Program-made: the position numbers and the translations under genes
Origin: Opitutia bacterium Tous-C4FEB
GTDB taxonomy: Bacteria; Verrucomicrobiota; Verrucomicrobiia; Opitutales; Opitutaceae
NCBI GenBank assembly: GCA_002304445.1
Contig: NEVA01000001.1
Coordinates: 1-64,000, forward strand
Direction of reading: 5' to 3'
DNA length: 64,000 nt
The notes under the pieces: model-generated
Database searches by the model: none
The model's input: only the letters and a program-made list of their open reading frames with translations
Told to the model about the DNA's origin: nothing
Part shown: positions 21,305 through 52,384 of the stretch, one piece after another
Layout of the letters: the number at the start of each line of letters is the position of its first letter
Numbering within the stretch: the stretch's first letter is position 1

Positions 21305-22777
21305 TCACGTTCCACAGAATGTCTGATATCCGGCACCGCCATTCGGTGCCGGCTCCCGGTAGGCCGCCGCCACTCCGTAATCGTAGGGCGCGGCCAATAC
21401 CGCCAGCAGTCGCTCCATCACCGACAGGTCGCCCTGCTCGGCCGCCGCGAGCGCGGCCTCGACCTGATGATTGCGCGGAATCACCGCCGGACAATTCGCC
21501 CGGCGCAGCCGCATCACCTCCTCTGCGCCCTGCGCCTGCCGCGTCAGCCGCGCCCGCCAGCTTGCCTTCCAGTCCGCAAATCCAGCGTCGGCCACCTCCA
21601 GCGTTTCCAGCCCGGTGAACGTGTTCGTGAAGTCGGCCTTCGTCGCCCGCATCCACTCCAATAGCGTCTCGACTAAGGCCACATCCTCGGCCTCTTCGTT
21701 CGCCAAGCCCAGCTTGCGCCGCATCCCGGCCAACCAGTGCCATTGGAATCGCTGCCCAAAACGCGCGATCGCCTCGTTCGCCCGCTCGACTGCCACCGCT
21801 TCCACCGGATCGATCAACGGCAACAACGCCTCCGCCAAACGCGCCAGATTCCATTGCGCGATCCGGGCCTGATTGCCGAACGCGTAACGCCCGTGGGCGT
21901 CAATTGAGCTGAACACCGTCGCCGGATCATACGTGTCGATGAACGCACAGGGACCGTAATCGATCGTCTCGCCCGACAACGCCATGTTGTCCGTGTTCAT
22001 GACTCCATGCACGAAACCCACGTGCATCCACCGGGCGATCAGCGCCGCCTGCCGCTCCGCCACCGCCTCGAAGAGCGCGAGAGCCCGGTTCTTCGCCGCC
22101 GCCAGTTCCGGATAATGACGCTTTACCGTATAGTCCACCAACGCGGCCAACAACTCCTCGTCCCGACGCGCCGCCACCCACGCAAACGTGCCGACGCGGA
22201 TATGACTCGCCGCGACCCGGGTGAGCACCGCGCCCGGTCGCGCCCCGTCTTGCCGCCACACTTCTTCTCCCGTGCCCGCCACCGCCAGACTTCGCGTGGT
22301 GGGAATGCCCAGCGCGTGCATGGCCTCGCTGACGATGTATTCCCGCAACATGGCCCCCAGCGTCGCCCGCCCGTCGCCGCGACGTGAAAACGGTGTCGGC
22401 CCCGCGCCTTTTAGCTGCACATCGAAACGCTCTCCCCGCGGCGTGATGTGCTCGCCCAGCAAGATCGCCCGCCCATCGCCCAACGTCGCGAAGTGTCCGA
22501 ACTGGTGCCCCGCATAGGCCTGGGCCAGCGGCGACGCGCCCGGCGGCAGGGAATTCCCGGAAAAAATCTGCGCCCCCTCGGGCCCCGCCAACCGCTCGCC
22601 TTCCAAGCCCAGTTCCCTCGCCAACAGGCGGTTGAAAACCAGCATCCGCGGAGCGCGCACCGGAGTGGGCGCGACGGCGACATGCAACGCCACGGGCAGC
22701 TGCGCGTAAGTGTGCTCCAGCCTCCAGCCCAGCTGAGCATCCCCGCTTTGACTTGGTCCCATCCCGATCTTGGCCAT
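21305..22777 (-). CDS. selO: SelO-type protein adenylyltransferase (YdiU)
   Basis: About 490 residues from ATG 22777; the 22795 start of the longer frame is a TTG. SelO has a pseudokinase fold that binds ATP upside down and transfers AMP to Ser/Thr/Tyr of proteins, linked to redox stress. Visible marks: QLGWRLEHTYAQLP near the start, YAGHQFGHFATLGDGRA, LKGAGPTPFSRRGDGRA, and the catalytic loop HGVMNTDNMAL. It ends in YQTFCGT, with cysteine where eukaryotic SelO may have selenocysteine. The gene is alone, convergent with the TonB receptor gene. Confidence 0.94.
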   Translation of the reverse strand: MAKIGMGPSQSGDAQLGWRLEHTYAQLPVALHVAVAPTPVRAPRMLVFNRLLARELGLEGERLAGPEGAQIFSGNSLPPGASPLAQAYAGHQFGHFATLGDGRAILLGEHITPRGERFDVQLKGAGPTPFSRRGDGRATLGAMLREYIVSEAMHALGIPTTRSLAVAGTGEEVWRQDGARPGAVLTRVAASHIRVGTFAWVAARRDEELLAALVDYTVKRHYPELAAAKNRALALFEAVAERQAALIARWMHVGFVHGVMNTDNMALSGETIDYGPCAFIDTYDPATVFSSIDAHGRYAFGNQARIAQWNLARLAEALLPLIDPVEAVAVERANEAIARFGQRFQWHWLAGMRRKLGLANEEAEDVALVETLLEWMRATKADFTNTFTGLETLEVADAGFADWKASWRARLTRQAQGAEEVMRLRRANCPAVIPRNHQVEAALAAAEQGDLSVMERLLAVLAAPYDYGVAAAYREPAPNGGAGYQTFCGT

Positions 22778-22974
22778 GGCCCTACCTTGACCCAAAACCC
22801 CGGCGCGTCGAGTCCACCACCGGATTCTGCACGGGTAGTTTCACTGCAACCGGCCACTCCACGATGACATGGAATGACCGGCAGGATGCGGAGGCGCTAA
22901 CGACCGGCGCCATGATCACCCCTAATCTCCGAATGTGGGCGGGACCCCGTGCAGCTCGACCGGCGCGGTGGATC

Positions 22975-23505
22975 CTACTTGGCGACCTCGACCGACGACA
23001 CGCGGAGGACGGCGGTGAGCGGCGAACCGGCAGGCGGCGCGTTGAGCGCGAATTGCTCGATGCTGATGTAGGGCGAGCGCGCTTGAAGATTCAGATAAAA
23101 TTTTTTCAACGACTCCCAGTCCACCCGGTTCACGGTGACTTGCAGGGAATGAACCGAGAATTGATCGCCGATCACATCGCGTTGCTCGCCGAGGCCGGGG
23201 TTGAGGCCGGCATCGCGAGCGATCTTGTCCACTTCGGCGTAGAGGCGAGTCGCGTCGAGCGTGCTGGCGGCGTCGAGTCGACCGGCGGATTTCTGGGCGG
23301 CGGCTTCGATGGCGGCGCGGTTCGCCAGCCACTGTTTCTGCTCGGCGAGGGTGACGGTGGTGGAGCGTTGCTCGCGCCAGAAAACACCGGCCCGGTCGCT
23401 GAAGCCGGAGAACCACATGGCGACGCCGAGGACGGCGAAGGCCACGAGCAGCAATTTTTCGCGGAGCAGGCGGGCGAGGAAGAGAGCGCGGAGGGTGCGG
23501 ATCAT
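22975..23505 (-). CDS. GspM/PilO-like inner-membrane secretion component
   Basis: A 176-residue bitopic membrane protein: a short basic cytoplasmic end, one hydrophobic span at about residues 18-35, then a coiled-coil-prone region and a ferredoxin-like C-terminal domain (DRV, FYLNLQARSPYISIEQFAL). This is the layout of GspM/PilO, which dimerises with GspL/PilN to join the cytoplasmic ATPase to the pseudopilus. It overlaps the GspL-like gene by four bases and is the last gene of the run. Sequence identity to known GspM is low, so the assignment rests on order and topology. Confidence 0.7.
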   Translation of the reverse strand: MIRTLRALFLARLLREKLLLVAFAVLGVAMWFSGFSDRAGVFWREQRSTTVTLAEQKQWLANRAAIEAAAQKSAGRLDAASTLDATRLYAEVDKIARDAGLNPGLGEQRDVIGDQFSVHSLQVTVNRVDWESLKKFYLNLQARSPYISIEQFALNAPPAGSPLTAVLRVSSVEVAK

Positions 23506-24668
23506 GGCGCAGCGGCCGGCTTGACGGCGCCGGGTTTGAAGGTGGTCGTGACGGTGAAGCTGGTAGTGGGCGAGCCGGGCGAATTGCGCTGGCTGCTGAT
23601 TTCGACGGAGGCGACTTCGGGCAGGCCTTCGAGCGCAGTCTTGAAGAGCGTGATCTCGCCGCTGTTGTCGGTGCGCGCTTCGATGACGGCGCGGTCAAGA
23701 TCTTTGGACTCGGTGGTGACGCGGGAGAACCGGATATTGCCGGGGATTTTTCCCGCCACGAGGGAGATCATCTCCATCGGGAGCAGCCGCTTGGTCGCCA
23801 AATCCTCGATGCGGGTGGCGAGCGTCTGCGCGTTCATGATTTTTTCGACCGTAGGCTTTTGCGCGGCGACTTGTTTGAGGCGGGCCTGTTGCCACGTGGC
23901 CCGACCCACGCCGAGCACCAGTTCGCCCGCGGCGAGAAGGACGAGCGCAAGGACACAGCCGACGGCCACCCGCCAAAAGAGCAGGTCGCGGGCGAGACCG
24001 CGGCGGCGGGCAGCGAGATCGGCCTTGTCGCGCACATCGAGGGCGGCGGCAGTGGCAGCGGGGAGCCGCGAGGTCACTTCGCCGGCGATAAAGGTGAACT
24101 CACCGTCGCTGGCGGCAGGTTGAGCGACCGGGAGAGTGGCGAGATCGAGCACCTTAAGGCTACCGCCGACCGTGCGGAGCAACTCGGTCTTGGCGGCGGT
24201 GAGCGCGGCCTCGTTGGCGGCGGGGTCGTCGGTCGCAGGTGGCAACGGAGCGGTGAAAATCTGGGCCGGGCCGTCGGCGACGGAGAGCAGCGCGGTGAGA
24301 CTTTCGGCGTGCGTGATGATGACGGTCGTACCGGGGTCCAGCGGCGCGCCGAGGAAGGCGGCAAAGGTCGGAAGCACGAGATCGGCGTCGAACCAAAGCT
24401 CGGTTTGCTCGGCGGTGAAGCGCCGGCGATAGGAGGCGAAGACCAAAGCGGCGGTCGCCCCGGGCGGGAAGTAGTAGCCGTGGTAAAGTTGGGCGACGGG
24501 AAACGGGGCGAGCGATTCAAGGGCGATCTCGACCTGCGCGGCCACGTCGGCGGCCGGGGTATCGGGGGCGATGGGAATGGCGCGGGTAAAAAACAGCGCG
24601 TCGGGCAAAAGACTGACTTTGGGCGGCGGCGGACCGGCCCGGAGAAATTTAAAAGGAGAATCGCTCAT
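23502..24668 (-). CDS. GspL/PilMN-like secretion component
   Basis: A 388-residue protein with an N-terminal cytoplasmic domain resembling the actin-like fold of GspL, a single membrane span at about residues 230-252 (FWRVAVGCVLALVLLAAGELVLG), and a periplasmic PilN-like domain ending in repeated beta strands (SFTVTTTFKPG). GspL links the secretion ATPase to the inner-membrane platform. It is upstream of and overlaps the GspM-like gene (ATGA) and lies 96 bases after the GspK-like gene. No ATPase gene (GspE) is present in the window. Confidence 0.7.
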   Translation of the reverse strand: MSDSPFKFLRAGPPPPKVSLLPDALFFTRAIPIAPDTPAADVAAQVEIALESLAPFPVAQLYHGYYFPPGATAALVFASYRRRFTAEQTELWFDADLVLPTFAAFLGAPLDPGTTVIITHAESLTALLSVADGPAQIFTAPLPPATDDPAANEAALTAAKTELLRTVGGSLKVLDLATLPVAQPAASDGEFTFIAGEVTSRLPAATAAALDVRDKADLAARRRGLARDLLFWRVAVGCVLALVLLAAGELVLGVGRATWQQARLKQVAAQKPTVEKIMNAQTLATRIEDLATKRLLPMEMISLVAGKIPGNIRFSRVTTESKDLDRAVIEARTDNSGEITLFKTALEGLPEVASVEISSQRNSPGSPTTSFTVTTTFKPGAVKPAAAP

Positions 24669-24764
24669 GCGCAGAAAGGGAAAAGAGGAGAATCAGAGTG
24701 AAAGAGAGAGAAAACGGCGCGGCGAGCAGGATTGCCGCGCCGCCGCGCCGCCCGCAATGACCGA

Positions 24765-26006
24765 TCAAGACGGCGGCGGAGGAGGTGGCGGGGGAAGCGG
24801 TTCGTTTTCGACCAGCTGGAGAATGGTGAACGGATAGTTGATGCGAGGGGCGGCGGCCGTGGCGGCTCCCGTGGGTCGAGACGACGGTTGGGCTGTCGCG
24901 GTGACATTGGAAGTGCTCTCGGCGTCATTTTCGGGGGTGTTGGCGCGGGCGGCGGTCGCGGTGGTGATGATGCTGGTGGCTCCGCCGCCTTGGGGCGACA
25001 CGACGACGTTGAGCCGATACTCGGAGCGGCCCTCGCGGACGGTCACCCGAATGCGAAGCGCGCTGATGGTGGTGGCAAACGCGTTGGCGCGACCCGTAGC
25101 GCCGAGGAAACGCCGGGCGTCATTGCCGGCGGTGAACCAGCCGGGACCGGTCGACGTGGACGTGCCGGTGCCGGTGCGATATTCGTCGAGCCGGCGTTTT
25201 TGAGTTTCATCGAATTCGCCGACCGCGGTGAGCACATCGGAACGGGCACCGTTAAGATTGCTCTCGCGGAAATTCAGCAGGGAAACGTTTTCGATGAAAC
25301 GGCGGTAAAGCTCGGTCGCGCGGCCATTCTCGTCGAAGAAAACGGTGCGAGCGAACTCGATGGCGGCCAGTTCCTCATAGGAGCGGAGGGACCGGCGGGG
25401 CTCGGTGTAGGGCACGACGGATTGTTCGTAGGCGGTCGAAAGGGCGGTCGTGTAGGTGTGGTTGCGCTGCTTCCAACCGAGGATCGCATCAACGAGTTTC
25501 TCGGAGTCGGCGATCGTGAGGCCCCAGGCGATAAAAAGATTCTGGAGTTGAACGCCGGTGGCACGCGGCAAGGAAAGTTTTCCGCTCTCGTCCTCGAAGG
25601 CGACTTCGACCGTGCGCCCGTCGCCCGGCGCGTAGGCGGCGAACCCGAGCGGATCGGCCCAGCCTTCGGCGGCTGAGTGGAGGCCGTTGGACGCGGCACG
25701 AAACTGTTCGAGAACCGCGAGCGTGGTCTCGAGCGCGGAGTAGGCTTCTTGGCGGAGGCGACGCGTGTCGGCCTCGCGGGCCTCGACGATGAGGTCGTTG
25801 GAGGCCTTTTCCAGAAAGACAGTGAGCGCCAGAGCGGTAAAAATCAGAGTGACCATGACGATCACGAGGACGGACGCGCGCTGCGGGAGCGTCGGGATTT
25901 CCGATTTTCGATTCTCGATTTTTGATGGCGGACGCACGCGAGCTTTCGGCGCTTCGGGTAAGTCCGAAGCGAATCGAGAATCGAAAATCGAAAATCGAGA
26001 ACCCAT
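24765..26006 (-). CDS. GspK-like minor pseudopilin
   Basis: About 413 residues from ATG 26006, which overlaps the GspJ-like stop by one base. A hydrophobic segment (VLVIVMVTLIFTALALTVF) is at about residues 50-68, followed by the large alpha-helical GspK domain (LFIAWGLTIADSEKLVDAILGWK) and a Ser/Thr/Ala-rich tail ending in eight prolines and a serine. GspK caps the pseudopilus tip with GspI and J. Its leader is unusually long because residues 1-45 are encoded by ATCGAAAATCGA repeats (RFSIFDSRF, SKIENRKSEI). The longer frame to 26336 is not used. Confidence 0.8.
   Translation of the reverse strand: MGSRFSIFDSRFASDLPEAPKARVRPPSKIENRKSEIPTLPQRASVLVIVMVTLIFTALALTVFLEKASNDLIVEAREADTRRLRQEAYSALETTLAVLEQFRAASNGLHSAAEGWADPLGFAAYAPGDGRTVEVAFEDESGKLSLPRATGVQLQNLFIAWGLTIADSEKLVDAILGWKQRNHTYTTALSTAYEQSVVPYTEPRRSLRSYEELAAIEFARTVFFDENGRATELYRRFIENVSLLNFRESNLNGARSDVLTAVGEFDETQKRRLDEYRTGTGTSTSTGPGWFTAGNDARRFLGATGRANAFATTISALRIRVTVREGRSEYRLNVVVSPQGGGATSIITTATAARANTPENDAESTSNVTATAQPSSRPTGAATAAAPRINYPFTILQLVENEPLPPPPPPPPS
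25901..26000. repeat. Inverted ATCGAAAATCGA repeat within the GspK-like leader
   Basis: Left arm at about 25901-25921 and right arm at 25971-26000 share AATCGAGAATCGAAAATCG (19 bases) in opposite orientation. Between them is a nested perfect hairpin, CGCTTCGG (25950-25957) and CCGAAGCG (25964-25971). The whole element is translated as the N-terminal leader of the GspK-like protein. Confidence 0.8.
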
Positions 26007-26758
26007 CAAAAATTGGGCAAGCCTTGGGGCGTGTTGCCGAGAGCGACCACGGTCTCGCGGGTGAGTTTGCCGTGAGCGAATTTCAGCCGGAGCCGCTGGG
26101 GCGCGGTGGCTTGGCCGTTGTTTTCTTTTTTGAGCGCAGGCTCGGTGGTCCACCGCATGAGCGCCGCATCGTAGTAATCGTACGCCAGCGCGGTGACGAA
26201 GGGTGTGAGCACCGTCTCCCGCGGCGGGTCGGAATCGAAACGGGTTTCGAGGCGGGAGTGCCAGAGCAGCACGAGACCCTCCTGCGGACGCGCTTGGAGC
26301 GAGCAGACCACCTCGGGCAGGGCGGGACCGGGCCAAGTGATGAGACGGGTGCCGGCGGGCAGTTCAAAGGTGAGCAGCGTATCGGTCGCGCCGCCGGTAG
26401 GCCGGATTTCCTGCGGGGCGACCGGCGAGGCGTTAGCGCGCGCGGCGGGAGGCAGGGTCGCGGCGCGGAGTTCGCGCTCAAGGGCGCGGGTGACAGCGCG
26501 GACGTGTTGCTCGAAGAGGCGGACGTCGGTGTTCTTGCCCCAGAGTTCGCCCATCGAAAACACGAAGGTGTTCATCGCAACGAGGAGCATCGCGACCAAG
26601 GCGAGGGAAAGAAGAATTTCGAGAAGAGTGAAAGCGGATTGGGTTCTCGATTTTGGATGCTTGATTTTCGATCCGATGAGAAAAGCGAAGCGTGTTCGGA
26701 GAGCACGCGCACCCGGCGGTCGCTCGGCCCACTCGGAAGCTTGGCGACGTGCGATCAT
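26006..26758 (-). CDS. GspJ-like minor pseudopilin
   Basis: A 250-residue type IV pilin-like protein. The methylation motif and hydrophobic helix FTLLEILLSLALVAMLLVAMNTF begin at about residue 43, so the prepilin leader is about 42 residues, far longer than the usual 6-15. Part of that leader (GSKIKHPKSRTQ) is encoded by a degenerate ATCGAAAATCGA repeat at 26641-26672. The globular part fits GspJ by size. It overlaps the GspI-like gene by four bases and the GspK-like gene by one. The prepilin peptidase would be elsewhere. Confidence 0.8.
   Translation of the reverse strand: MIARRQASEWAERPPGARALRTRFAFLIGSKIKHPKSRTQSAFTLLEILLSLALVAMLLVAMNTFVFSMGELWGKNTDVRLFEQHVRAVTRALERELRAATLPPAARANASPVAPQEIRPTGGATDTLLTFELPAGTRLITWPGPALPEVVCSLQARPQEGLVLLWHSRLETRFDSDPPRETVLTPFVTALAYDYYDAALMRWTTEPALKKENNGQATAPQRLRLKFAHGKLTRETVVALGNTPQGLPNF
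26641..26672 (-). repeat. Degenerate ATCGAAAATCGA repeat in the GspJ-like leader
   Basis: Reading on the minus strand, GATCGAAAATCAAGC then CCAAAATCGAGAACCC. The end AAAATCGAGAACCC is shared exactly with the right arm of the element at 25901-26003. Confidence 0.7.
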
Positions 26759-27228
26759 TTTTTGGTCTTCCCCTGGATTTCCGCGATGCGGTCTTGCACG
26801 GCTTGGCGGAGCTGGGATTTCTCGACGGCATCAGACCACGTGGGCCGAAGGACGGTGAACACCTGGGTCGTCTTCTGCGAATCGCCGCCCTTGGAGTTGT
26901 CGGAGATCTCGCAGACAAAAGTCACGGTGAAGAGGTCGGGCAGCGTCGTGCTCGCAAGCGTGGCGGTCCAGCGGACACGGCGGCCCTCGGTGGCTTCAAA
27001 CTCGGCCCCGGCCTCGACCTTGGCGCGATCGGGTTCGGCAAGAAGTTGGGCGCGGGCGAAGGCGACGTCTTCGTCGCGGGTGTTGCCGCGGGAAACGGCC
27101 TCGTAGCTGTTGAGAACGTTGACGTAGGTGGAGCCGAGGACGACGGCGGCCAAGCCGAAGATCATCAATGCGACGAGCACCTCGAGGAGGCTGAAGCCGG
27201 AGCGAAATCTGGCTGATCGATGCTTCAC
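26755..27228 (-). CDS. GspI-like minor pseudopilin
   Basis: A 157-residue prepilin with a normal short leader (MKHRSARFRSG) and FSLLEVLVALMIFGLAAVVLG at residues 12-32, including Glu5 of the mature protein. The remainder is a small globular domain rich in beta strand. Size and place between GspH and GspJ favour GspI, part of the tip complex that starts pseudopilus assembly. It overlaps both neighbours by four bases, showing translational coupling. Confidence 0.82.
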   Translation of the reverse strand: MKHRSARFRSGFSLLEVLVALMIFGLAAVVLGSTYVNVLNSYEAVSRGNTRDEDVAFARAQLLAEPDRAKVEAGAEFEATEGRRVRWTATLASTTLPDLFTVTFVCEISDNSKGGDSQKTTQVFTVLRPTWSDAVEKSQLRQAVQDRIAEIQGKTKK

Positions 27229-27806
27229 GGGTTAGGGGCGCGCGGGATGACGGGCGCGCAAGTCCAAGGGTCGATCGCGATGATGCTGGCACCGCCGTTG
27301 AGCCTGATTTGCAGGCGAAACGCCGTGCAGGTGCCGTCCGAGTAAAACGTGACGCCGCCGGGCAGCGGTTCCGTCTCAACGACGCTCCCACCGAGCAAAA
27401 TCAAACCGCCCGTGCGTTGGGTGGAGAGGAAATCAACGCCCAAATCTGCGGGCGCACCGGGAATCGGGATCGTTTTGGAAACACCGTCGAACGAGGTGAG
27501 GACAAACGCCTTGGCCTTGTCGTCGAAACGAAACGCGATGTCGCGCTGCGAATTGAGGGCAGTCTTCCGGGCAGTGCGAACCGCCGACCAAAAGACATCA
27601 TTGGCGGAAGGCGCGCGCTCGGAAATCAACGCGGAGGATCCGCCGATCAGGGCGCCGGCCAGGAGGCCGATAAGCGCAAGCGTGAGAAGAATCTCAAGCA
27701 GCGTGAATCCGGCGCGATTTTGGGCGCAGCGCGGAGGGTTAAGACTAACCCGCTTTAACCCTGTGGCCGGTCCGGGCGGCGGGAGCCGGTGGCCTGACTC
27801 GGTCAT
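27225..27806 (-). CDS. GspH-like minor pseudopilin
   Basis: A 193-residue prepilin with FTLLEILLTLALIGLLAGALIGG at about residues 34-56 and a longer than usual leader. The C-terminal part shows alternating strands and two cysteines (GTCTAF, WTCAPV) that could form a disulfide in the periplasm. GspH connects the tip complex to the main GspG shaft. It starts four bases after the GspG stop and overlaps the GspI-like gene by four. Confidence 0.8.
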   Translation of the reverse strand: MTESGHRLPPPGPATGLKRVSLNPPRCAQNRAGFTLLEILLTLALIGLLAGALIGGSSALISERAPSANDVFWSAVRTARKTALNSQRDIAFRFDDKAKAFVLTSFDGVSKTIPIPGAPADLGVDFLSTQRTGGLILLGGSVVETEPLPGGVTFYSDGTCTAFRLQIRLNGGASIIAIDPWTCAPVIPRAPNP

Positions 27807-27809
27807 GGA

Positions 27810-28301
27810 TTACTTAGTGGGCGCAGCCGGAGCATCCCAGTTGCCGATGTCGTCTTCGTTGCCGTCGACTTTGTCCGGGCCCTTAGAATACAAGTCATAG
27901 CTCCCTTTATTTTTCGCGCCCGGGGACCGGTATTGATAAGGCTCACCCCAAGGATCAAGCGGGACCTTGTTGCCTTCGATGTAAGGGCCGCGCCAACGGT
28001 CGGCTTTATTGGCCGGGGCGGTGATGAGGGCTTGGATGCCGTCCGACGTGGACGGGTAATCGCCGACATGGATGCGATAGGTCGTGAGCGAGGTCTTCAT
28101 GCTTTCGCGGACGAAGAGCGAGGCCGTCGTAGTCTGGGCGCCGCCGAAAATCTTATCGACGTTGCTGATCGCGAGGCCGGCGAGCAGGCCGATGATCGCG
28201 AGCACAACGAGGATTTCCAAGAGCGTGAAGGCGCGGCGGCTCTTCGACGCCCGGATCAGGGGGTTGGTTTGGAAAGGGACGGAACGGAAGGTCGAGGGCA
28301 T
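27810..28301 (-). CDS. gspG: GspG-like major pseudopilin
   Basis: About 163 residues from ATG 28301 (MPSTFRSVPF). A leader of about 24 residues precedes AFTLLEILVVLAIIGLLAGLAISNV with the mature Glu5. The C-terminal domain carries the GspG hallmarks: YPSTSDGIQALI, WRGPYI, LDPWGEPYQYRSPG and a calcium-site tail (SKGPDKVDGNEDDIGNW). GspG polymerises into the type II secretion shaft. It heads the tight GHIJK run. A longer frame to 28406 has no better start. Confidence 0.92.
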   Translation of the reverse strand: MPSTFRSVPFQTNPLIRASKSRRAFTLLEILVVLAIIGLLAGLAISNVDKIFGGAQTTTASLFVRESMKTSLTTYRIHVGDYPSTSDGIQALITAPANKADRWRGPYIEGNKVPLDPWGEPYQYRSPGAKNKGSYDLYSKGPDKVDGNEDDIGNWDAPAAPTK

Positions 28302-28421
28302 ATTCGAGCTGAAGTTGGAGATTCGCTGACGGTTGTCGAGACGCCGACGGACGCTCAAGGTTGCAATAAAATGCGACGCGGCCGAGTCGATCGGACAATC
28401 GACCACCGGTCGGTGCTAAAG

Positions 28422-29012
28422 CTAAAGCAACGGCTCACCGCCGGGGGGTGGCGGAGGCGTCAAGCGGGCGTCGTCGGTCGTGCCGAATTTCTTATCGGGG
28501 CCGGCGGAGCGGACCTCCATGCGGTCTCCGGCGAGTGCGTGAAAAAGGAAGGGCGTGCCCCAACGGTCAACGAGCTCGCCCGCGGCGTTGATCGCCGGAT
28601 GGGTGCGCGGAATCAGGCGAAGACCGAGGGAGTTGTCGCCGGTGAGCGCGGCCGTGATCTCGGCGTTTTCACCCCAAGGGTTGCCGGCATTGGGGAAATT
28701 GAGGCGCCAGTCGCTCAGCAAGTCGTTTAAGAGCGTGAGGTCGCGAGTAATGGTGCCGCCGGGAGCATTGAGCGCGGCGGCGACAGAAATGGTGGGAGAC
28801 GAATCAACAAAAAGGGGCCGATCGTTCGTGCCCGCAAAAGGAACGGGAGCAACAGGGAGCGACGGCGCAGCAGGCGCAGCAGGCGCAGCGGGAGCGGCGG
28901 GTGAAGGAGCCGCCGGGGAGGAATCGGCCGGGCGGCGCGGGAGCAACGACCAAACAAGGGCTCCGCCAAGCAGGGCCAAGCCGAGGACGAGCAGAAGGCG
29001 GCGGAAAGACAT
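28422..29012 (-). CDS. Membrane-anchored orphan protein with a GspG-like C-terminus
   Basis: A 196-residue protein with an N-terminal hydrophobic anchor (LLLVLGLALLGGALVWSLL), a low-complexity Ala/Pro linker made by repeated nine-base units (about residues 30-52) and a globular end. The end, LVDRWGTPFLFHALAGDR then SAGPDKKFGTTDDA, mirrors the GspG pattern LDPWGEPYQYR...SKGPDK.DGNEDD just downstream, but the pilin motif FTLLE is absent. It is thus a GspG-related domain on a different anchor. Function unknown; place at the head of the pseudopilin run suggests a partner of the shaft. Confidence 0.7.
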   Translation of the reverse strand: MSFRRLLLVLGLALLGGALVWSLLPRRPADSSPAAPSPAAPAAPAAPAAPSLPVAPVPFAGTNDRPLFVDSSPTISVAAALNAPGGTITRDLTLLNDLLSDWRLNFPNAGNPWGENAEITAALTGDNSLGLRLIPRTHPAINAAGELVDRWGTPFLFHALAGDRMEVRSAGPDKKFGTTDDARLTPPPPPGGEPLL

Positions 29013-29053
29013 TCCGAAAGGCAGATCGATCAGGAATCAAAGGCGAGACGGCT

Positions 29054-29117
29054 GGTCGCCTGTGGGAGCGACCACCTCTCTGTGCGCGAGGAGGGCGGGT
29101 CGGAGACCCTGCCCTAC
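29054..29117. repeat. Two hairpins of the GTAGGGC family
   Basis: GGTCGC (29054-29059) pairs with GCGACC (29068-29073), and GGGC-GGGTC (29093-29101) pairs with GACCC-t-GCCC (29105-29114), then TAC. It fills the gap between the DUF1501 stop and the orphan GspG-like gene. Confidence 0.65.
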
Positions 29118-29121
29118 TTAT

Positions 29122-30630
29122 TTAGAGGAAAGCCGGGAGAGCGCGGGAATCGGTGAAGCGGCGGATGTTGGGCAAGACCGTCGAAAGATTGGTCGGGCTG
29201 ACGCCGAACCAGGTCGCCAACGTCGCGCTGTATTCATCGACGCTGGTGGTCGGAATCCAGTTGCCGCGGGAACCCGAGTCATCGGGGCCGCTGCGGGTGA
29301 GGTTGGGCATGCGGCCGTAGATGTCGCCGCCTTTGACCGCGCCGCCGACGATGAAGTGGTGCGAGCCCCAGCCATGGTCGGAGCCGTCGCCGTTGGTGTT
29401 AAACGTGCGGCCGAAGTCCGAGGCCGTGAACGTCGTGACTTGTTCCGCGGCGCCCAGTTCGACGGTGGCGTTGTAAAAGGACGAGAGGCTACGGGAAATG
29501 TCGGCGAAGATGTTCGCGTGGGCTCCGGTCGCGGTGTTGCCGGCGTTGACTTGAGCATCATGGAGGTCGAAGCCGCCGATGCGGGCAAAGAAGACCTGGC
29601 GCTTGAGCCCGAGCGTGGGTGCGGCGGCGATGAGGCGGGCGATGGTGCGGAGCTGTTGGCCGAGGCTGGTCGTGGGGAACGCGGTGGTGAAGGGCACCGC
29701 TCCGGCAAAGATGCTGGCCACAAGGGCGCTGTCGGAGATGGCGTTGGAAGTGAGTCCGGCAAACGCGGTTTCGAAAAGGTTTTGGTTTTGCGCGGCGAGC
29801 AGATCGTTTTGGGCCTTCGTGCGGATGTTCTGGAAACCGGTGCCGACCGGGGAAGCGGAACCGGAGACCCTGATGGCGCCCGTGGGGCTGACGGCGTACT
29901 GGGCGACCTTCGGGCTCGAGCCGACTTGGAACGCGTTTTGGCCGTTCAAGGTGATCGACATCGAGATCGAGTTGTTCGAGTTCATCGCGTCGGTGAGGTC
30001 GGCCATCCGGCCGCCCCAGCCGGAGGTGAACGCCCGGTCGGGAATGCTGCTCTGCCATTCGACCTGTTGGTCGTTGTGCGAAAAGAGCTGGAGCGGAAGC
30101 GGCACGGAGCGGGCCATGTATTGGGCCTTGGTCGTGGGCACGGCGAGGGTACCGACGTTGGCGAGAAGGGCCATCTTGCCCGAATCGAAGAGGGACTTGA
30201 GGCCTGTCGTGTTCGTGCCGGCGAGGTCGAAGTTGAGTGCAGGGTGCAGGGCCCAAGCGCGGCCGTCGGAGGTCTTGGGGTTGAGGCCGAGCAGGGAGCT
30301 GCGCGGCAGGGCGAGCGCGCCACGGCCCCCGGAGATCGAGGCGTAACCGGTGGCGGCGGCGGCGGAACCGTAGCCGGCGTCGTCGTTGGGGATCAGGAGA
30401 TTGTTGGCGTCGTTACCGCCGGCGAAGAAGAGGCAGACGAGGGCTTTGTAGTCGGAGGGCAGCGCGCCGGCGGCGGTAGGGACGACCGGGCCTTGGTCAG
30501 GGCTGGCGAGCGCGCCCGTCAGCCGGAGCTGCGCGAGCGTGGACAACATACCTGTAGCACCGACGGCAGCGCAGCAGGAACCGATGAACTGGCGGCGGGC
30601 AGGATCGAACGAAGGATTTTTTGGATTCAT
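29122..30630 (-). CDS. DUF1501 protein with Tat-like signal
   Basis: A 502-residue exported protein. The start, FDPARRQFIGSCCAAVGATG, has a twin-arginine pattern (RRQFIG) followed by a hydrophobic region. The body matches DUF1501, of the alkaline-phosphatase-like fold: LVCLFFAGGNDANNLLIP near residue 65, LFSHNDQQVEWQS, FFARIGGFDLHDAQ, and TFTASDFGRTFNTNGDGSDHGWGSHH near 400 with clustered His/Asp that could bind metal. Members always travel with DUF1800, as here (32 bases apart). Biochemical role unknown. It lies directly upstream of the pseudopilin run. Confidence 0.9.
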   Translation of the reverse strand: MNPKNPSFDPARRQFIGSCCAAVGATGMLSTLAQLRLTGALASPDQGPVVPTAAGALPSDYKALVCLFFAGGNDANNLLIPNDDAGYGSAAAATGYASISGGRGALALPRSSLLGLNPKTSDGRAWALHPALNFDLAGTNTTGLKSLFDSGKMALLANVGTLAVPTTKAQYMARSVPLPLQLFSHNDQQVEWQSSIPDRAFTSGWGGRMADLTDAMNSNNSISMSITLNGQNAFQVGSSPKVAQYAVSPTGAIRVSGSASPVGTGFQNIRTKAQNDLLAAQNQNLFETAFAGLTSNAISDSALVASIFAGAVPFTTAFPTTSLGQQLRTIARLIAAAPTLGLKRQVFFARIGGFDLHDAQVNAGNTATGAHANIFADISRSLSSFYNATVELGAAEQVTTFTASDFGRTFNTNGDGSDHGWGSHHFIVGGAVKGGDIYGRMPNLTRSGPDDSGSRGNWIPTTSVDEYSATLATWFGVSPTNLSTVLPNIRRFTDSRALPAFL

Positions 30631-30662
30631 GGGAGCGGTGGCTTTTCGGCGGGGAGCGCGGA

Positions 30663-33600
30663 TTATTTTTGAATCGAACCCTCGGGGGAGGTGACCACGA
30701 GGTAGAGAGCAGAACGCACGCGCTCAAGGTCGGACGTGCTGGCGGGCATTCGGGTAAGAGCTGAAACAATGAGCTCGGTATCCGACCGGGCCATCGTGCC
30801 ACCGGCCAAAACCAAATTGGCGTAATCGACGAGTTGTTGCGGCGACCGAGCCAAGGGCAACAGGTCGGTCAACGTCAGGCCGACGTTCGTAGCGTTGCGA
30901 GTCGCGTAAAGCATGTTGTAAAGATAGTTGGGGATGGTGATCGCCGTCGTATCCGTAAAAATCTGAAATTCGGGAGCGAAAAGACCGGCGGCGGCCAACA
31001 CGCCAGGATGCACGTATTCAGGCTCGAAAAAGTTGAACACCGTCGGGGCCCGCAGGGCCGCTTGGGCCAGCCCGCTTCCCTCTGGATTTGAGTAGGCCCC
31101 CAAGTAACGACCGCCATCGGAAGCTCCATTGAAGGCGCGGAGGAGAGCCGTGGCGCGGAGCAGCGGCTCCTTCGATTTGCCAAATCCGACCGAGTTCAAG
31201 AAGGCCGGCGAACGGGCTTCATAATCGGTCAGGATCGCCCGCACAACCGCGCCGAGATCGCCGCGCACGCCCGCTCCGTTATTTGCGAAGGCGGAGGCAA
31301 CACGGTACACGTAACCCGGGCTGGGATTGCTCGTGACCAGACGCTGGATGAGCTGACGGGAGATAAACGGCGGCGTGTTGGGGTGATTGAAGAGCGTGTC
31401 CAGCGTGTCCTTGAGGTCCTTAATGCCGCCTTGGTTAGCGGGGAGAACTTTGCCGGTGACGATCGTTTTTGCCGTGTCGTCGTGGAACGTAGGAAAGAGC
31501 ACCATCGGGTTGAGATAGCTCTCACTGCCGGGGCCGGTGCCACGGAAGTTGGGCGTGGCCACACTTTGGAAAAAGCCCCAACCCGTGAAGACCTTGGCGG
31601 TCTGGACAATCATGTCCTGCGTGTAGGTGGGAATCGGCTGGCCGTTGACGTCGAGTTTGAGGGTGCCGTCGGGCTGGAGTTCGTTGCGACCGATGGTGAA
31701 CAGCTGCATCACTTCGCGCGCGTAATTTTCGTCGGCTTGGGTGAGTTGGACACCTTGGTTGTTGAACGTGGCTTTGGCGTTCCGCAGCGAGCTGAGGTAG
31801 ATACCCATGTTGGGACTCAGCGTCACATTCTCGAGGAGCTGGCGGAAATTACCAAAGGCACCACGTACCAGCAGATCGTAATATTGAGCGTGGCCGTCCT
31901 GCCAAGCGTTGATCGTGCTGTTGGTATCGGACGTGACAAGAATCTGGCTCAGGGCAAAGGCGACGCGCTGGCGGAGTTGGTCAGGGGCGTTTACCGCCAG
32001 CTTCCACCAAGCGTTCTGCCGATGAACCCCGCCGATGCGGGTATTCAATACAGGGGGCATTGCATTGGCGTTACCGCCGGCCCCGCCGGCATTGTTGAGC
32101 GCAAAATCGGTATTGGCCGCGGCGAGATGCAACGAGGCCGGCAAGGCCATCTGTTCGTTCAACCAAGCGGTGTAGCCCTTAACGGTAAGGGCGTAGATCT
32201 CATCGTTTTTCGGGCCAAACGTCGCTTGGGCCAAGAAACGCGAAGCATCTTGCGCGGTGATCCGAGCCAGATCGACCGCCGGAGGAGGCGGCGGGGAGTT
32301 GAAGACGGACGACCCGGTGTTGCGCACGAAACTACCGGCGAGTTCGCCTGTGGGATTGCTGGCCGAATCAATCGTGATCGTGATACGGCCGGCTTTGAGC
32401 GCCGCAACGAGGTCTGAGGAGCTGTAGCCGAGGGTGGGCGCGAAGTCCCAGAACGCGTTACTGACCTGACCTTGAGGCAATTTGAGGAGGTAGTTTCCGT
32501 CGATGTAAAGGTACCCAAGTACCTGCGGCGAACTCAAATTTGAGAACGAAACGTTGATGTAGGCGGACTTTTCGTCCGGCGCCAAAAGGATGGTGCCAGT
32601 GCCGTTGGCCGTGGAACCCATGACCGTGGAAGGCGTGCGGAGATTGGAAACGTAGAGCGCTCCGGAATTATAGAAAAAAGAAACACTCGCCGACTCGGCA
32701 GCCGCCACGCCGTAGGTCCGGTTAGCGATCAGCGTGAGGGTGGCCGTGCGGTTGTTGAGATTGCCGGAATTAACCCGCGGCGTAAGCGTGACGGTCGCCG
32801 TGGATGCTCCCGCTGCAAACGACGCCACGCCGCTCACGGGCGCGTAATCGACCCCGGATTGGGCCGTTCCGCCGATGGTGTAGGCGACGTTGATCGCCGA
32901 AGCGAGATTACCGACGCGGTTGAGCGTGAAGACCGCAGGAGTGGTTCCCCGCGAATCAACACTCACGACGGATGCCGCCACGCTGACCGTCGACAAAACC
33001 TCGGATGTGAGGTCGTAGACCTCGATCAAGGCCACGCCCCCGGTGCCACCGACGCCGGACGCCTGGATGGTATAGCCGCCCGGAGGGAGGTCGACGAGAA
33101 CTGCCGAGTCTCGGGCCCCAGGAGCGAAGGGAAACGCGCCGTTCTGCGCAAACGCCGCCGAAAGTGCGGCAGTGTTGGCGGCGCCGTCCGAGTCCCAGTT
33201 ATCATTACCCGCTCCGGCCACGATCCGGCCGGAGGAGTTTAGAATCGAAAAGACGGGATCGCTCAGAAATCCGGTGAAACCGAGCCCGTTTAGGGACGGT
33301 CCCGCCACCCGCACCATCAGTCGTCGCGATCCGCCGCCGGGAGCGATATTCACGCCGGCGATCAGAATCCCGTTGCCCGGCGATACCAGAGCACGCGTCG
33401 AGATGTTGAGTAGCCGGGCGGAGCCGGTGAGATCATAAACTTCGAGCAGGCCGATTCCGGACGTGTTGCCGACGCCGCTGACCGAAGCGGTGTAGGTGCC
33501 AGGGGCCAGGGTCGCGATGAGGGCCGAGTCGTTGTTGGCACTGTTGCCGAATGAAAACGCGCCGGCTGAAGCGGTGGCGGCGGCCAGCGCAGCTTGATTG

Positions 33601-33914
33601 TTGTCGCTGCTGTTCCAATTGTCGTTCTCGAGCACGAGTTGCCCGCTGTTGTTGAAGACGCGCAAGATCGGATTCGTCAAAACCCCCGTGAGCCCAAACG
33701 GCGCTTGGCTCAAGCGCTGCCCAACGGCACGGATCAGAATCCGCTTCGGCGCGCCGTCGGTCACGATGAAGCCGGTGATCATGACGTTGTTGCCGGTGCC
33801 TACTTGGCCGCGGGTGGCGAGGCTCGTGACGCGTTGATCATACTGAGCCGCGCGGGCGGTCGGAAACGCGGAGAACAGAGCGACCAAGGAGATGAACAGG
33901 CGCGAAGTTTTCAT
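30663..33914 (-). CDS. Large secreted DUF1800 protein with beta-domain repeats, Calx-beta and CHRD domains
   Basis: About 1083 residues from ATG 33914, with a Sec signal (MKTSRLFISLVALFSAFPTARA). In order: two copies of a roughly 125-residue beta domain ending GLLEVYDLTG and GVALIEVYDLTS (residues 25-280); a Calx-beta-like region (AINVAYTIGGTAQSGVDYAPVSG); a CHRD-like domain (about 400-520); then DUF1800 from about 540 (ARFLAQATFGP, LRQRVAFALSQILV, YAREVMQLFTIG, HPNTPPFISRQLIQRL). DUF1800/DUF1501 pairs are widespread in Verrucomicrobiota and Planctomycetota with no known function. The N-terminal domains suggest surface exposure. First gene of the presumed operon. Confidence 0.9.
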   Translation of the reverse strand: MKTSRLFISLVALFSAFPTARAAQYDQRVTSLATRGQVGTGNNVMITGFIVTDGAPKRILIRAVGQRLSQAPFGLTGVLTNPILRVFNNSGQLVLENDNWNSSDNNQAALAAATASAGAFSFGNSANNDSALIATLAPGTYTASVSGVGNTSGIGLLEVYDLTGSARLLNISTRALVSPGNGILIAGVNIAPGGGSRRLMVRVAGPSLNGLGFTGFLSDPVFSILNSSGRIVAGAGNDNWDSDGAANTAALSAAFAQNGAFPFAPGARDSAVLVDLPPGGYTIQASGVGGTGGVALIEVYDLTSEVLSTVSVAASVVSVDSRGTTPAVFTLNRVGNLASAINVAYTIGGTAQSGVDYAPVSGVASFAAGASTATVTLTPRVNSGNLNNRTATLTLIANRTYGVAAAESASVSFFYNSGALYVSNLRTPSTVMGSTANGTGTILLAPDEKSAYINVSFSNLSSPQVLGYLYIDGNYLLKLPQGQVSNAFWDFAPTLGYSSSDLVAALKAGRITITIDSASNPTGELAGSFVRNTGSSVFNSPPPPPAVDLARITAQDASRFLAQATFGPKNDEIYALTVKGYTAWLNEQMALPASLHLAAANTDFALNNAGGAGGNANAMPPVLNTRIGGVHRQNAWWKLAVNAPDQLRQRVAFALSQILVTSDTNSTINAWQDGHAQYYDLLVRGAFGNFRQLLENVTLSPNMGIYLSSLRNAKATFNNQGVQLTQADENYAREVMQLFTIGRNELQPDGTLKLDVNGQPIPTYTQDMIVQTAKVFTGWGFFQSVATPNFRGTGPGSESYLNPMVLFPTFHDDTAKTIVTGKVLPANQGGIKDLKDTLDTLFNHPNTPPFISRQLIQRLVTSNPSPGYVYRVASAFANNGAGVRGDLGAVVRAILTDYEARSPAFLNSVGFGKSKEPLLRATALLRAFNGASDGGRYLGAYSNPEGSGLAQAALRAPTVFNFFEPEYVHPGVLAAAGLFAPEFQIFTDTTAITIPNYLYNMLYATRNATNVGLTLTDLLPLARSPQQLVDYANLVLAGGTMARSDTELIVSALTRMPASTSDLERVRSALYLVVTSPEGSIQK

Positions 33915-34086
33915 AGGGAATCGGGCTAAAGCGGTTGTGGGGAGTGCCGAAGGGGTTCGGAGTCGGCCGGACAACAAGTTGTTGACGGGAAGGTGTATAG
34001 TCGGCGCCCAAAAGTCGAGCCGCCGATTGCAAAAAATAAGCAAATTTTTGATGACCAGCATTTAAACATCCACCGCAAGCGTAGCC

Positions 34087-34866
34087 TCAACGTCCGCACC
34101 AACCGCCATCCACCGTCATAACGTGGCCACTCATGTAGTCGCTTGCGGGCGAAGCCAAAAAGACAATCGCCCCCTCCAGATCACTTGGCTCGCCCCAGCG
34201 GCCCGCCGGAATTCGACCCAGAATCTCTTGGGAACGCACGGCATCGGCCTGGAGCGCAGCGGTGTTGTCGGTGCGCATATAGCCGGGCGCGATGGCGTTT
34301 ACCGTGACGCCCTGCTTGGACCATTCGTTCGACAGCGCTTTGGTGAGCTGACCGACCGCGCCTTTGCTCGCAGCATAGCCCGGCACCGTGATGCCGCCGA
34401 AGAACGTGAGCAGCGATGCGATGTTGATGATCTTGCCGGAGCCGCGACCGATCATGTGCCGACCCGCGGCTCGGCAGGCGGTGAACACTCCGTTAAGATT
34501 AACGTCGATGACCTCATCCCAATCGGCATCCGTGTGATCGACGGCCGGCGCGCGCTTAATGATGCCGGCGTTATTGACGAGGATATCAAGCTGCCCCTGC
34601 CAAGCCACGGCTTCATCGATGAGCCGCTGGACGGCGGCCCGGTCGCCCAGATCGGCCGCACTCGCGTGAGCGCGGACGCCGAGGTTGAGCGCGGCTATCT
34701 CGGCAACAACGGGAGCTAGTTTCGCCGCATCACGGCCATTAATGATCACGTCCGCCCCGGCGCGCGCGAGGGCGAGAGCCATGGCTTTGCCGAGGCCTCG
34801 GGAAGAGCCGGTGACGAGGGCGACCTTCCCGGCGAGGCCGAATTTTTGCTGGAGAAACGAGTTCAT
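34087..34866 (-). CDS. kduD: Short-chain dehydrogenase, 2-deoxy-D-gluconate 3-dehydrogenase type (KduD)
   Basis: About 259 residues from ATG 34866. A Rossmann-fold NAD(P) enzyme: TGSSRGLGKA binds the dinucleotide, NNAG near residue 88, and the catalytic Ser and Tyr-x-x-x-Lys (PGYAASK) near 140-160. In pectin and alginate breakdown KduD reduces or oxidises 2,5-diketo-3-deoxygluconate/KDG. The gene next upstream on the same strand is kduI, 15 bases away, which makes KduD more likely than gluconate 5-dehydrogenase. The stop codon is at 34087-34089. Confidence 0.88.
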   Translation of the reverse strand: MNSFLQQKFGLAGKVALVTGSSRGLGKAMALALARAGADVIINGRDAAKLAPVVAEIAALNLGVRAHASAADLGDRAAVQRLIDEAVAWQGQLDILVNNAGIIKRAPAVDHTDADWDEVIDVNLNGVFTACRAAGRHMIGRGSGKIINIASLLTFFGGITVPGYAASKGAVGQLTKALSNEWSKQGVTVNAIAPGYMRTDNTAALQADAVRSQEILGRIPAGRWGEPSDLEGAIVFLASPASDYMSGHVMTVDGGWCGR

Positions 34867-34881
34867 GGACGCAGCGGGCAA

Positions 34882-52027: not shown

Positions 52028-52384
52028 TCAGGGAGGATATATAACCGTACGAGACCCTGCAACCCCAGTGACTTTGATCGGCACCCCTTGGCTAAAAGTG
52101 AGCGGATAAGTCTCATTTGCTACAATTTTGAGTTCTGTGACGAGATTGGTCGGGCCAACCAGTTTGTCTAATGTCACTGTAGAAACACCGTTCTTCAAAA
52201 AGTATTCTTCAGCAGCCACTGCCAACCTACGGGCATTATCAAGAACCGCTTTATCTTGTGTGGACTGACGAAGCTTTTCGAAGGCAGGAAACGCCATAGC
52301 GGCCAAAAGGCCGATGATGACGACGACGATCATGATTTCGACAACGGTAAAGCCCTTAGAGGAGTTGTTGGATAAGTTTTTCAT
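52028..52384 (-). CDS. Type IV pilin-like protein
   Basis: A 118-residue prepilin: MKNLSNNSSKG leader, then FTVVEIMIVVVIIGLLAAMAFPAF with mature Glu5, and a small globular part (AVAAEEYFLKNGVSTVTLDKLVG; VIYPP end). It resembles the short general pilins common in Verrucomicrobiota. It is not part of the pseudopilin run at 23-28 kb, being a lone gene. Use of codons is more AT-rich than in neighbours. The role (twitching, adhesion or DNA uptake) is unknown. Confidence 0.88.
   Translation of the reverse strand: MKNLSNNSSKGFTVVEIMIVVVIIGLLAAMAFPAFEKLRQSTQDKAVLDNARRLAVAAEEYFLKNGVSTVTLDKLVGPTNLVTELKIVANETYPLTFSQGVPIKVTGVAGSRTVIYPP

What the first reader, a model, noticed from the sequence alone, without database searches (positions are those of the whole stretch)
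22975..33914. DUF1800/DUF1501 pair fused to a pseudopilin operon without secretin or ATPase
Ten minus-strand genes run in order: DUF1800, DUF1501, orphan GspG-like protein, GspG, H, I, J, K, L, M-like. The pseudopilin genes overlap by 1-4 bases (or are separated by 3), so they are translationally coupled. GspC, D, E, F and N are absent from the whole window. DUF1800 and DUF1501 are a known pair of unknown function. The arrangement suggests a dedicated pseudopilus that exports or displays this pair, or uses it as cargo or cap. Joining them is inference from order.
Basis: partly seen in the sequence, partly recalled or inferred. Interest (0 to 1): 0.72.

Follow-up and report, generated by a model that had tools for sequence, protein, structure and literature searches.

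The report
DUF1800-DUF1501 cassette with pilin-head protein
Two widespread bacterial proteins of unknown function turn out to travel, in many members of one phylum, with a membrane-tethered look-alike of the piston protein of a known secretion machine, and in this genome they sit beside half of that machine (the other half is elsewhere in the genome), which suggests they are cargo that the look-alike helps to export.

Summary
The ten-gene array is real, but it is not a pseudopilus lacking secretin and ATPase. The same genome carries GspD-E-F on another contig, plus a prepilin peptidase and a second, diverged pseudopilin operon. In several relatives D-E-F sit beside orthologues of this G-M operon, so the window holds the pseudopilin half of a split type II secretion system (T2SS). 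The more interesting part is the third gene, the "orphan GspG-like" ORF. It is the usual partner of DUF1800-DUF1501: of 59 places sampled across Verrucomicrobiota, 50 have DUF1501 directly upstream, 49 with DUF1800 before it (34 genomes, 10 families). It has an N-terminal membrane anchor, a proline-rich linker and a predicted GspG-fold head, but no prepilin peptide (0 of 66, against 17 of 18 true GspG), so it should not polymerise. The trio is linked to T2SS genes in two arrangements: upstream of GspG in many Opitutaceae, and beside T2SS clusters in two genomes of a family related at class level. Most copies are not beside T2SS genes. Best reading: exported DUF1501/DUF1800 are T2SS clients, and the third gene is a membrane-anchored, GspG-mimicking chaperone or adaptor. 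Linkage is shown, the fold is predicted, client status is inferred.

The parts
30663..33914 (-). DUF1800 protein, 1083 aa from the ATG with a signal-peptide-like start (a frame with an upstream ATG runs to 34061); N-terminal tandem module, then weak Calx-beta and CHRD matches, then DUF1800
   Evidence: the only DUF1800 match in the genome
33000..33842 (-). tandem ~135-aa module in the DUF1800 N-terminus (residues 25-305), shared with other proteins of the genome, where it mostly sits at the C-terminus
29122..30630 (-). DUF1501 protein, 502 aa, twin-arginine start (RRQFIG), weak alkaline-phosphatase-superfamily fold match
28422..29012 (-). third gene: 196 aa, N-terminal membrane anchor (helix 3-23), Pro/Ala-rich linker, predicted GspG-fold head (83-185), no prepilin peptide
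27810..28301 (-). GspG, major pseudopilin (ATG at 28301)
27225..27806 (-). GspH-like minor pseudopilin
26755..27228 (-). GspI-like minor pseudopilin
26006..26758 (-). GspJ-like minor pseudopilin
24765..26006 (-). GspK-like minor pseudopilin (below family cut-offs; ATG at 26006 overlaps the GspJ stop)
23502..24668 (-). GspL-like assembly-platform protein, assigned by position; no Pfam or NCBIfam match
22975..23505 (-). GspM-like protein (NCBIfam GspM_XpsM 2e-5, below cut-off)

Best explanation
Two modules lie head to tail. (1) GspG-M is the pseudopilin and platform half of the genome's main T2SS; its secretin, ATPase and platform protein (GspD-E-F) lie at another locus (shown by homology; the split is read from relatives' gene order). 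(2) DUF1800-DUF1501-third gene is a cassette found in many Verrucomicrobiota. DUF1501 (twin-arginine signal, possible alkaline-phosphatase-type metalloenzyme) and DUF1800 (signal-peptide-like start) are exported to the periplasm. The third protein stays anchored in the inner membrane by one helix and presents a GspG-shaped head on a flexible linker. Without the prepilin peptide and a continuous alpha-1 helix it should not enter the pseudopilus fibre. Proposed (inferred): it works as a membrane-bound T2SS chaperone or adaptor, holding the folded clients at the T2SS platform through GspG mimicry so that the pseudopilus can push them through GspD to the surface.
For: Third gene directly after DUF1501 in 70 of 80 named loci and in 50 of 59 places of a phylum-wide sample, 49 with DUF1800. 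Among 67 measured DUF1501-to-third-gene junctions, 12 overlap by 4 bases and 4 by 1 base (one more scored as -85, probably a start-codon misassignment), so the two are often coupled. Structure: the predicted model (pLDDT 84) has GspG pseudopilins as its top five PDB chains (four entries; prob 0.91-1.00, E 0.006-0.09), the next match being at E 2.8; a second aligner gives seven GspG entries Z 5.8-7.4, next type IV pilins 4.1. Profile comparison aligns the GspG C-terminal loop (E 5.7e-5, prob 66%). No prepilin motif in 66 of 66, against 17 of 18 GspG with it. T2SS linkage: GspG directly downstream in 35 of 80 loci; in another family, a T2SS cluster with E, K, L, D, F, G and H-J genes beside the trio in G278, and K, L, an M-like gene and D beside it in G138. 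In the six fetched loci with D-E-F beside window-type pseudopilin genes, the GspE matches this genome's C23 copy better than its C27 copy. Precedent: 'T2SS chaperones' (LipB, CpaB) are defined as genes beside their effector with an N-terminal membrane helix and a periplasmic C-terminus, required for secretion (PMC4713064, passages), and Tat-exported phospholipase PlcH leaves by the T2SS (PMC4899797, passages).
Against: Most trios are not beside T2SS genes: 45 of 80 named loci lack GspG directly downstream (3 of them at a contig end), and in the phylum sample outside family f1 only 2 genomes, both of one family, have a cluster of T2SS genes beside a trio; lone GspF-, GspE- or prepilin-type genes near others (L287, L295, L316, L324) were not counted. 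Nine of 59 third genes stand without DUF1501. The linkage may be one ancestral event inherited in Opitutaceae: GspG-adjacent DUF1501 all fall in one 47-row clade (100/96 support), though the label needs at least 4 changes. Foldseek E-values for the third protein are not below 0.001, and Z below 8 can occur for unrelated folds (note). G069 has the trio but no GspL match; its GspD was not searched. Nothing shows secretion, membrane topology or interaction.
Confidence: 0.5

Rival explanations
1. The trio is a self-contained periplasmic enzyme complex. The GspG-fold head is a membrane tether or scaffold for DUF1501/DUF1800 and has nothing to do with the T2SS; adjacency in Opitutaceae is inherited neutral order or shared regulation.
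For: The trio is more widespread than its T2SS linkage: 49 trios in 34 genomes of 10 families, with a T2SS cluster beside it seen in two families. Extra trio copies lie away from pseudopilin genes in genomes that also have a linked copy (L160 beside L154; L190 beside L178; L213 beside L176).
Against: A GspG fold is an odd choice for a scaffold unrelated to the T2SS. The linkage occurs in two different arrangements (upstream of GspG; beside J or K) and persists in five other genera whose GspL is only 47-54% identical to the window's.
Confidence: 0.32
2. One reading: a dedicated pseudopilus without secretin or ATPase that displays or exports the pair.
For: No secretin, ATPase or GspF match on the window's contig.
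Against: GspD-E-F present at C23; GspD in 13 of 13 genus genomes; D-E-F lie beside the same operon type in L119-L121, L123, L128 and L129; a prepilin peptidase is present.
Confidence: 0.04
3. The third gene is a structural T2SS part that replaces GspC: like GspC it has a membrane helix, a Pro-rich linker and a periplasmic domain, and in the window it occupies the slot that a short exported protein holds in the C27 operon.
For: Slot and topology; no GspC-like ORF noticed by eye upstream of GspG in the trio-less window-type operons whose output was visible (output cut in the middle).
Against: It mostly follows DUF1501, mostly away from T2SS genes; many T2SS operons have none beside them (L115, L117-L120, L122, L123); its predicted fold matches GspG.
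Confidence: 0.07
4. The GspG-like head arose from a GspG duplication during operon rearrangement and is a decaying pseudopilin.
For: Shared C-terminal loop with GspG.
Against: Found across ten families with near-invariant D, H, G-P-D and D-D positions (93-100% of 59) and a hydrophobic N-terminal segment in 66 of 66; kept with DUF1501 rather than with GspG.
Confidence: 0.03

Closest known systems
Type II secretion system, GspC-O (e.g. Pul, Xcp)
   Same: GspG and minor pseudopilins H-K, L- and M-like proteins here; GspD, E, F and a prepilin peptidase elsewhere in the genome
   Different: Genes split over at least two loci; GspC not identified; L, M, J and K are divergent, below family cut-offs or without a match
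Membrane-bound T2SS chaperones LipB/Lif and CpaB (PMC4713064, passages read)
   Same: Gene beside the putative client, N-terminal membrane helix (3-23 here, 7-26 in CpaB), rest predicted periplasmic, short or overlapping junction
   Different: Head is a predicted GspG-type pilin fold rather than a Lif or SRPBCC domain; client status and need for secretion unproven
Major pseudopilin GspG (3g20, 1t92, 5o2y, 4lw9)
   Same: Predicted fold of the periplasmic head and the C-terminal loop
   Different: No prepilin cleavage or methylation motif; head separated from the membrane helix by a low-confidence Pro-rich linker, so no continuous alpha-1
DUF1800/DUF1501 operons with chitin synthase in Enterobacterales and others (PMC5122149, passages read)
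   Same: Co-directional DUF1800 and DUF1501 genes, twin-arginine motif on DUF1501
   Different: No pilin-head partner or T2SS link is mentioned in the passages read; other neighbours
Tat- and T2SS-dependent exoprotein PlcH (PMC4899797, passages read)
   Same: Folded enzyme taken across the inner membrane by Tat and then secreted by a T2SS, the route proposed for DUF1501
   Different: No sequence relation claimed; secretion of DUF1501 untested

Membership tests
Type II secretion system | Outer-membrane secretin GspD | tested here: met
   C23:184761-186818, Secretin 1.3e-38 plus three Secretin_N stretches; not in the window
Type II secretion system | Assembly ATPase GspE and platform protein GspF | tested here: met
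   C23:187370-188542 and 188847-189821
Type II secretion system | Major pseudopilin GspG | tested here: met
   T2SSG 4.2e-29; TIGR01710 8.6e-36 over cut-off
Type II secretion system | Minor pseudopilins H-K | tested here: inconclusive
   Prepilin motif in H, I, J; GspH/I/J/K models match below cut-off; order as in relatives with D-E-F alongside
Type II secretion system | GspL, GspM | tested here: inconclusive
   GspM 2e-5 below cut-off; GspL by position only
Type II secretion system | Prepilin peptidase | tested here: met
   C6:29831-30202, 7.8e-16
Type II secretion system | GspC | not tested
   No family search for GspC was run; none noticed by eye near GspD or GspG
Pseudopilin / type IV pilin (third gene) | Prepilin cleavage/methylation motif | tested here: not met
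   0 of 66 relatives and 0 of 59 phylum-wide ORFs, control 17 of 18 GspG
Pseudopilin / type IV pilin (third gene) | GspG-type periplasmic fold | tested here: met
   Top five PDB chains all GspG; Z 5.8-7.4; predicted model only, E-values above 0.001
Membrane-bound T2SS chaperone (CpaB/LipB type) | Encoded beside its client | tested here: inconclusive
   Follows DUF1501 in 70 of 80 and 50 of 59 places, but DUF1501 is not a proven T2SS effector
Membrane-bound T2SS chaperone (CpaB/LipB type) | N-terminal membrane helix with periplasmic C-terminus | tested here: met
   Hydrophobic N-terminal segment in 66 of 66, helix 3-23 in the model; orientation inferred, not tested
Membrane-bound T2SS chaperone (CpaB/LipB type) | Required for secretion of the client | not testable with these tools
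   Needs a mutant and exoproteome
Verru_Chthon cassette (TIGR02596, TIGR02599) | Proteins C and D over their cut-offs | tested here: not met
   TIGR02599 28 bits of 256.5; TIGR02596 20-22 bits of 70
Alkaline-phosphatase superfamily (DUF1501) | Fold and conserved metal-site-like D/H residues | tested here: inconclusive
   Foldseek to LtaS, sulfatases and AP, best E 1.2e-3, prob up to 0.98, low TM-scores, model pLDDT 69; D74, D355, H357, D405, H419 invariant in 56 of 56, their role as metal ligands is inference; no sequence match in PDB

The most novel reading that the evidence does not exclude
A class of membrane-tethered 'decoy pseudopilins' spread through a phylum: proteins that carry the GspG head without the polymerising peptide and hand a DUF1501/DUF1800 client pair to the type II secretion machine, giving a functional handle on both DUF families.
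Probability: 0.3. Interest if true: 0.82.

Novelty: new variant of a known kind. Interest (0 to 1): 0.58.

Why it matters
DUF1800 and DUF1501 occur in several bacterial groups, and the passages read offer no function for either. Their usual third partner in Verrucomicrobiota, with a predicted GspG fold and no prepilin peptide, gives a concrete and testable hypothesis: they are type II secretion clients with a pilin-mimicking anchor. It would add a new head type to the small set of T2SS chaperones and bear on the open question of how the T2SS recognises folded clients. It also shows that a gene set that looks incomplete in one window can be half of an ordinary machine.

Tried and rejected
Dedicated pseudopilus without secretin or ATPase: rejected, D-E-F found elsewhere. 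Recent duplicate of a second T2SS: the genome has a second operon on C27 (E, F, then a short exported protein, H-M; no GspG between them), but its GspL is only 34% identical to the window's, so it is an old paralogue. GspC role for the third gene: considered, unlikely (see rivals). Verru_Chthon cassette: scores far below cut-off. Profile search of the third gene against PDB sequences found nothing credible (best E 0.26); Pfam T2SSG matches it weakly in 12 of 24 members, not in the window's own (best 0.015), so the GspG link rests on profile comparison and predicted structure. DUF1501 against PDB sequences: no match. Promoter/terminator scan of 22500-35000: 0 promoter-like sites, 24 terminator-like against 13 (sd 4.4) in shuffles; too weak to settle transcription units.

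Chance of the distant T2SS linkage: not formally computed. Two genomes of one family may be one event, so I give it modest weight. The places fetched from the phylum search (59 third genes in 36 genomes) were the stronger matches chosen by me, not all of its list; weak matches to the C-terminal loop alone were left out. Trees: 78 different DUF1501 of 92 extracted; adjacency to GspG needs 6 changes (at least 4 forced by supported branches), which does not separate one gain with losses from several gains; the tool warned of long branches, and a row near a contig end may be labelled 'not adjacent' wrongly. Literature: 2 papers hold both DUF names, 4 DUF1800, 10 DUF1501; of these I saw passages of PMC5122149, PMC6653060, PMC4452313 and PMC5615132 (in the last the find showed no DUF1501 passage in the main text) and only listings of the rest. 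Further searches listed no paper joining DUF1800/DUF1501 to pseudopilins, but lists were capped at 10. PMC4452313 (passage) says that an earlier paper, Kamneva et al. 2012, analysed DUF1501-containing gene clusters of these bacteria; I did not see that paper, so the third gene may have been noted there. 'Not in print' is not claimed.
Full report
OBSERVATION. The window (contig C1:1-64000 of a 3.76 Mb draft genome in 39 contigs) has the ten minus-strand genes in the reported order. DUF1800 (30663-33914), DUF1501 (29122-30630) and GspG (27810-28301) are unambiguous; H, I and J carry prepilin motifs; K and M match their models only below cut-off; L has no family match; the third gene (28422-29012) has none. 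Inside the pseudopilin set most junctions overlap by 1 or 4 bases or are 3 bp apart, but K-L is separated by 96 bp; the junctions around the third gene are 109 and 120 bp.

WHERE THE REST OF THE MACHINE IS. Whole-genome searches find two secretins, both on C23, five over-cut-off ATPases of the GspE/PilB/PilT type and six GspF-domain matches in three proteins. Reading these places: C23:184.8-189.9 kb is GspD-E-F with no pseudopilins recognised beside it. C27 begins with E and F, followed on the other strand by a short exported protein, H, I, J, K, L and M (names by position and similarity); its GspL is 34% identical to the window's. C23:226.7-230.5 kb has a PilM-like protein and two further genes before the second secretin, and C35 has three ATPases and a GspF-family protein, taken here as a type IV pilus set. 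A prepilin peptidase is on C6. I fetched 40 of the GspL-bearing loci: in 10 of 40, D, E and F all lie in the same stretch as the pseudopilin operon; in the six of these with window-type pseudopilins (L119, L120, L121, L123, L128, L129) the GspE matches the C23 copy better than the C27 copy (for GspD only the C23 copy was used as query). GspD is found in 13 of 13 genomes of the genus, on another contig than the G-M operon wherever that operon was found. So I read the window operon as the pseudopilin half of a T2SS whose other half lies elsewhere.

THE TRIO. Across relatives the third gene stays with DUF1501, not with GspG. A scan of the genome collection (84,980 species) with its alignment gave 191 relatives; the best 80, all titled Opitutia, Opitutae, Opitutales, Opitutaceae, Opitutus or Verrucomicrobia/-iia, were fetched. 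DUF1501 lies directly upstream in 70 of 80, is absent in 8, and 2 are at a contig edge. GspG lies directly downstream in 35 of 80, is absent in 42, and 3 are at a contig edge. In 67 measured junctions the DUF1501 stop overlaps the next start by 4 bases in 12 and by 1 base in 4. A phylum search found matches in 103 of 387 genomes, many of them short ones to the C-terminal loop only. I fetched stronger ones chosen from that list: of 59 places in 36 genomes, 50 have DUF1501 directly upstream and 49 also DUF1800, in 34 genomes and 10 families; 9 stand alone. The window genome has one DUF1800 and 16 DUF1501 matches, the window's being a divergent one (96 bits, against 478-524 bits for 12 others).

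WHAT THE THIRD PROTEIN IS. Each of 66 aligned relatives has an N-terminal hydrophobic segment and none has a prepilin motif, while 17 of 18 GspG do; 0 of 59 phylum-wide ORFs have it. The stretch after the helix is rich in proline (19% of residues 26-80 on average, 4% in GspG). The C-terminal ~100 residues carry near-invariant D-x-W-G-x-P, F-H, R-S-A-G-P-D and D-D. Profile comparison aligns 46 C-terminal columns with GspG (E 5.7e-5, probability 66%). The predicted structure (mean pLDDT 84; linker low) has a helix at 3-23 and a head from about residue 83. Its first five Foldseek matches in the PDB are chains of major pseudopilins GspG from four entries, E 0.006-0.09, probability 0.91-1.00; the next is an unrelated protein at E 2.8. 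VIA-align gives seven GspG entries at Z 5.8-7.4 over 88-102 residues, type IV pilins next at 4.1. I take this as a GspG-type head on a membrane leash. By the prepilin test it is not a pseudopilin.

LINKAGE TO THE T2SS. In the genus, 12 of 13 genomes have DUF1501, third gene and pseudopilin genes on one contig (in G003 and G011 the contig ends within DUF1501, so DUF1800 is not seen there); the 13th cannot be judged. One genome in each of five further genera of the family has it (G029, G036, G037, G039, G042). In G039 the array is complete: D-E-F convergent with M-L-K-J-I-H-G-third gene-DUF1501-DUF1800. Other members of the family (f1, Opitutaceae by the titles of its named relatives) have trio and operon apart (G016, G019, G032, G041) or the operon with no trio beside it and no close DUF1501 (G015, G018). 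In a family related at class level, G278 has E, K, L, an M-like gene, D, F, G, H, I and J and then, after two further ORFs, DUF1800-DUF1501-third gene; G138 has GspK directly upstream of DUF1800, with L- and M-like genes and GspD diverging; E, F and G were not seen in the stretches of G138 fetched (Pfam support for E, K, D, F and for prepilin motifs in H-J, the H and I ones below cut-off). The arrangement differs from that in Opitutaceae. No other trio of the phylum sample has a T2SS gene cluster within the fetched stretch; single GspF-, GspE- or prepilin-type genes occur near L287, L295, L316 and L324. The tree of 78 DUF1501 proteins puts all 31 GspG-adjacent ones in one supported clade of 47, with at least 4 changes of state. 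I therefore read the linkage as real, old in Opitutaceae and present at least once elsewhere, but not obligatory.

MECHANISM. Shown: gene order, homology, a hydrophobic N-terminus, the missing prepilin peptide. Predicted: the fold. From established knowledge (partly recalled): the T2SS exports folded proteins delivered by Sec or Tat; Tat-exported PlcH leaves by the Xcp T2SS (PMC4899797, passages); membrane-bound T2SS chaperones are recognised by a gene beside the effector, an N-terminal membrane helix and a periplasmic C-terminus (PMC4713064, passages). DUF1501 begins with a twin-arginine motif (R12, R13 invariant in 56 of 56; a twin-arginine motif on DUF1501 is also reported in PMC5122149). 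Its model (pLDDT 69) resembles alkaline-phosphatase-superfamily enzymes weakly, with D74, D355, H357, D405 and H419 invariant; reading these as metal ligands is inference. Inferred: DUF1501 and DUF1800 are clients, and the third protein docks them to the T2SS through GspG mimicry. The main rival is a free-standing periplasmic complex with a pilin-fold tether; the abundance of trios away from T2SS genes keeps it alive.

VERDICT. The secretin-less machine is an artefact of looking at one window. The lasting find is the third gene of the DUF1800/DUF1501 cassette. In the papers I could search (passages of seven papers, listings of the rest) I saw no mention of it, but an earlier study of DUF1501 gene clusters in these bacteria (Kamneva et al. 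2012, cited in PMC4452313) was not available to me.

Noticed in passing
window 33000-33842 and 36 further matches genome-wide: The N-terminal tandem module of the DUF1800 protein recurs in other proteins of the genome. In 29 of the 30 loci examined the best match ends within 17 residues of a stop codon (several loci overlap), often as V-E-V-Y-E; besides the DUF1800 copy, the match at C7:91494-92099 is also not C-terminal. It may be a surface or sorting domain.
   Followed up: partly
L105, L106, L107, L109, L113, L114, L119, L122, L127, L128: Proteins ending in the same module lie up to about 4.5 kb downstream of GspM in relatives, in L119 and L128 between GspM and GspF; possible further T2SS clients.
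   Followed up: partly
L017 (G000:C27:1-7910): Second T2SS-like operon (E, F, short exported protein, H-M) with no GspG recognised in it; the contig starts at GspE, so a GspD could be missing from the assembly.
   Followed up: partly
G000:C35:10646-13618: A further cluster of five prepilin-type matches, two of them below the Pfam cut-off, possibly a Verru_Chthon-type cassette; not examined.
   Followed up: no
L272 (G000:C36:36257-36538): A second copy of the GspG-like head domain in the same genome, with no DUF1501 or DUF1800 match in the 17 kb fetched around it.
   Followed up: no
window 52289-52366, minus strand: A prepilin-type N-terminus elsewhere in the window, away from the operon.
   Followed up: no
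L016 (C23:216.5-223.9 kb): A 2453-residue protein with many bacterial Ig domains, ending in the same tandem module, directly downstream of the second secretin.
   Followed up: no
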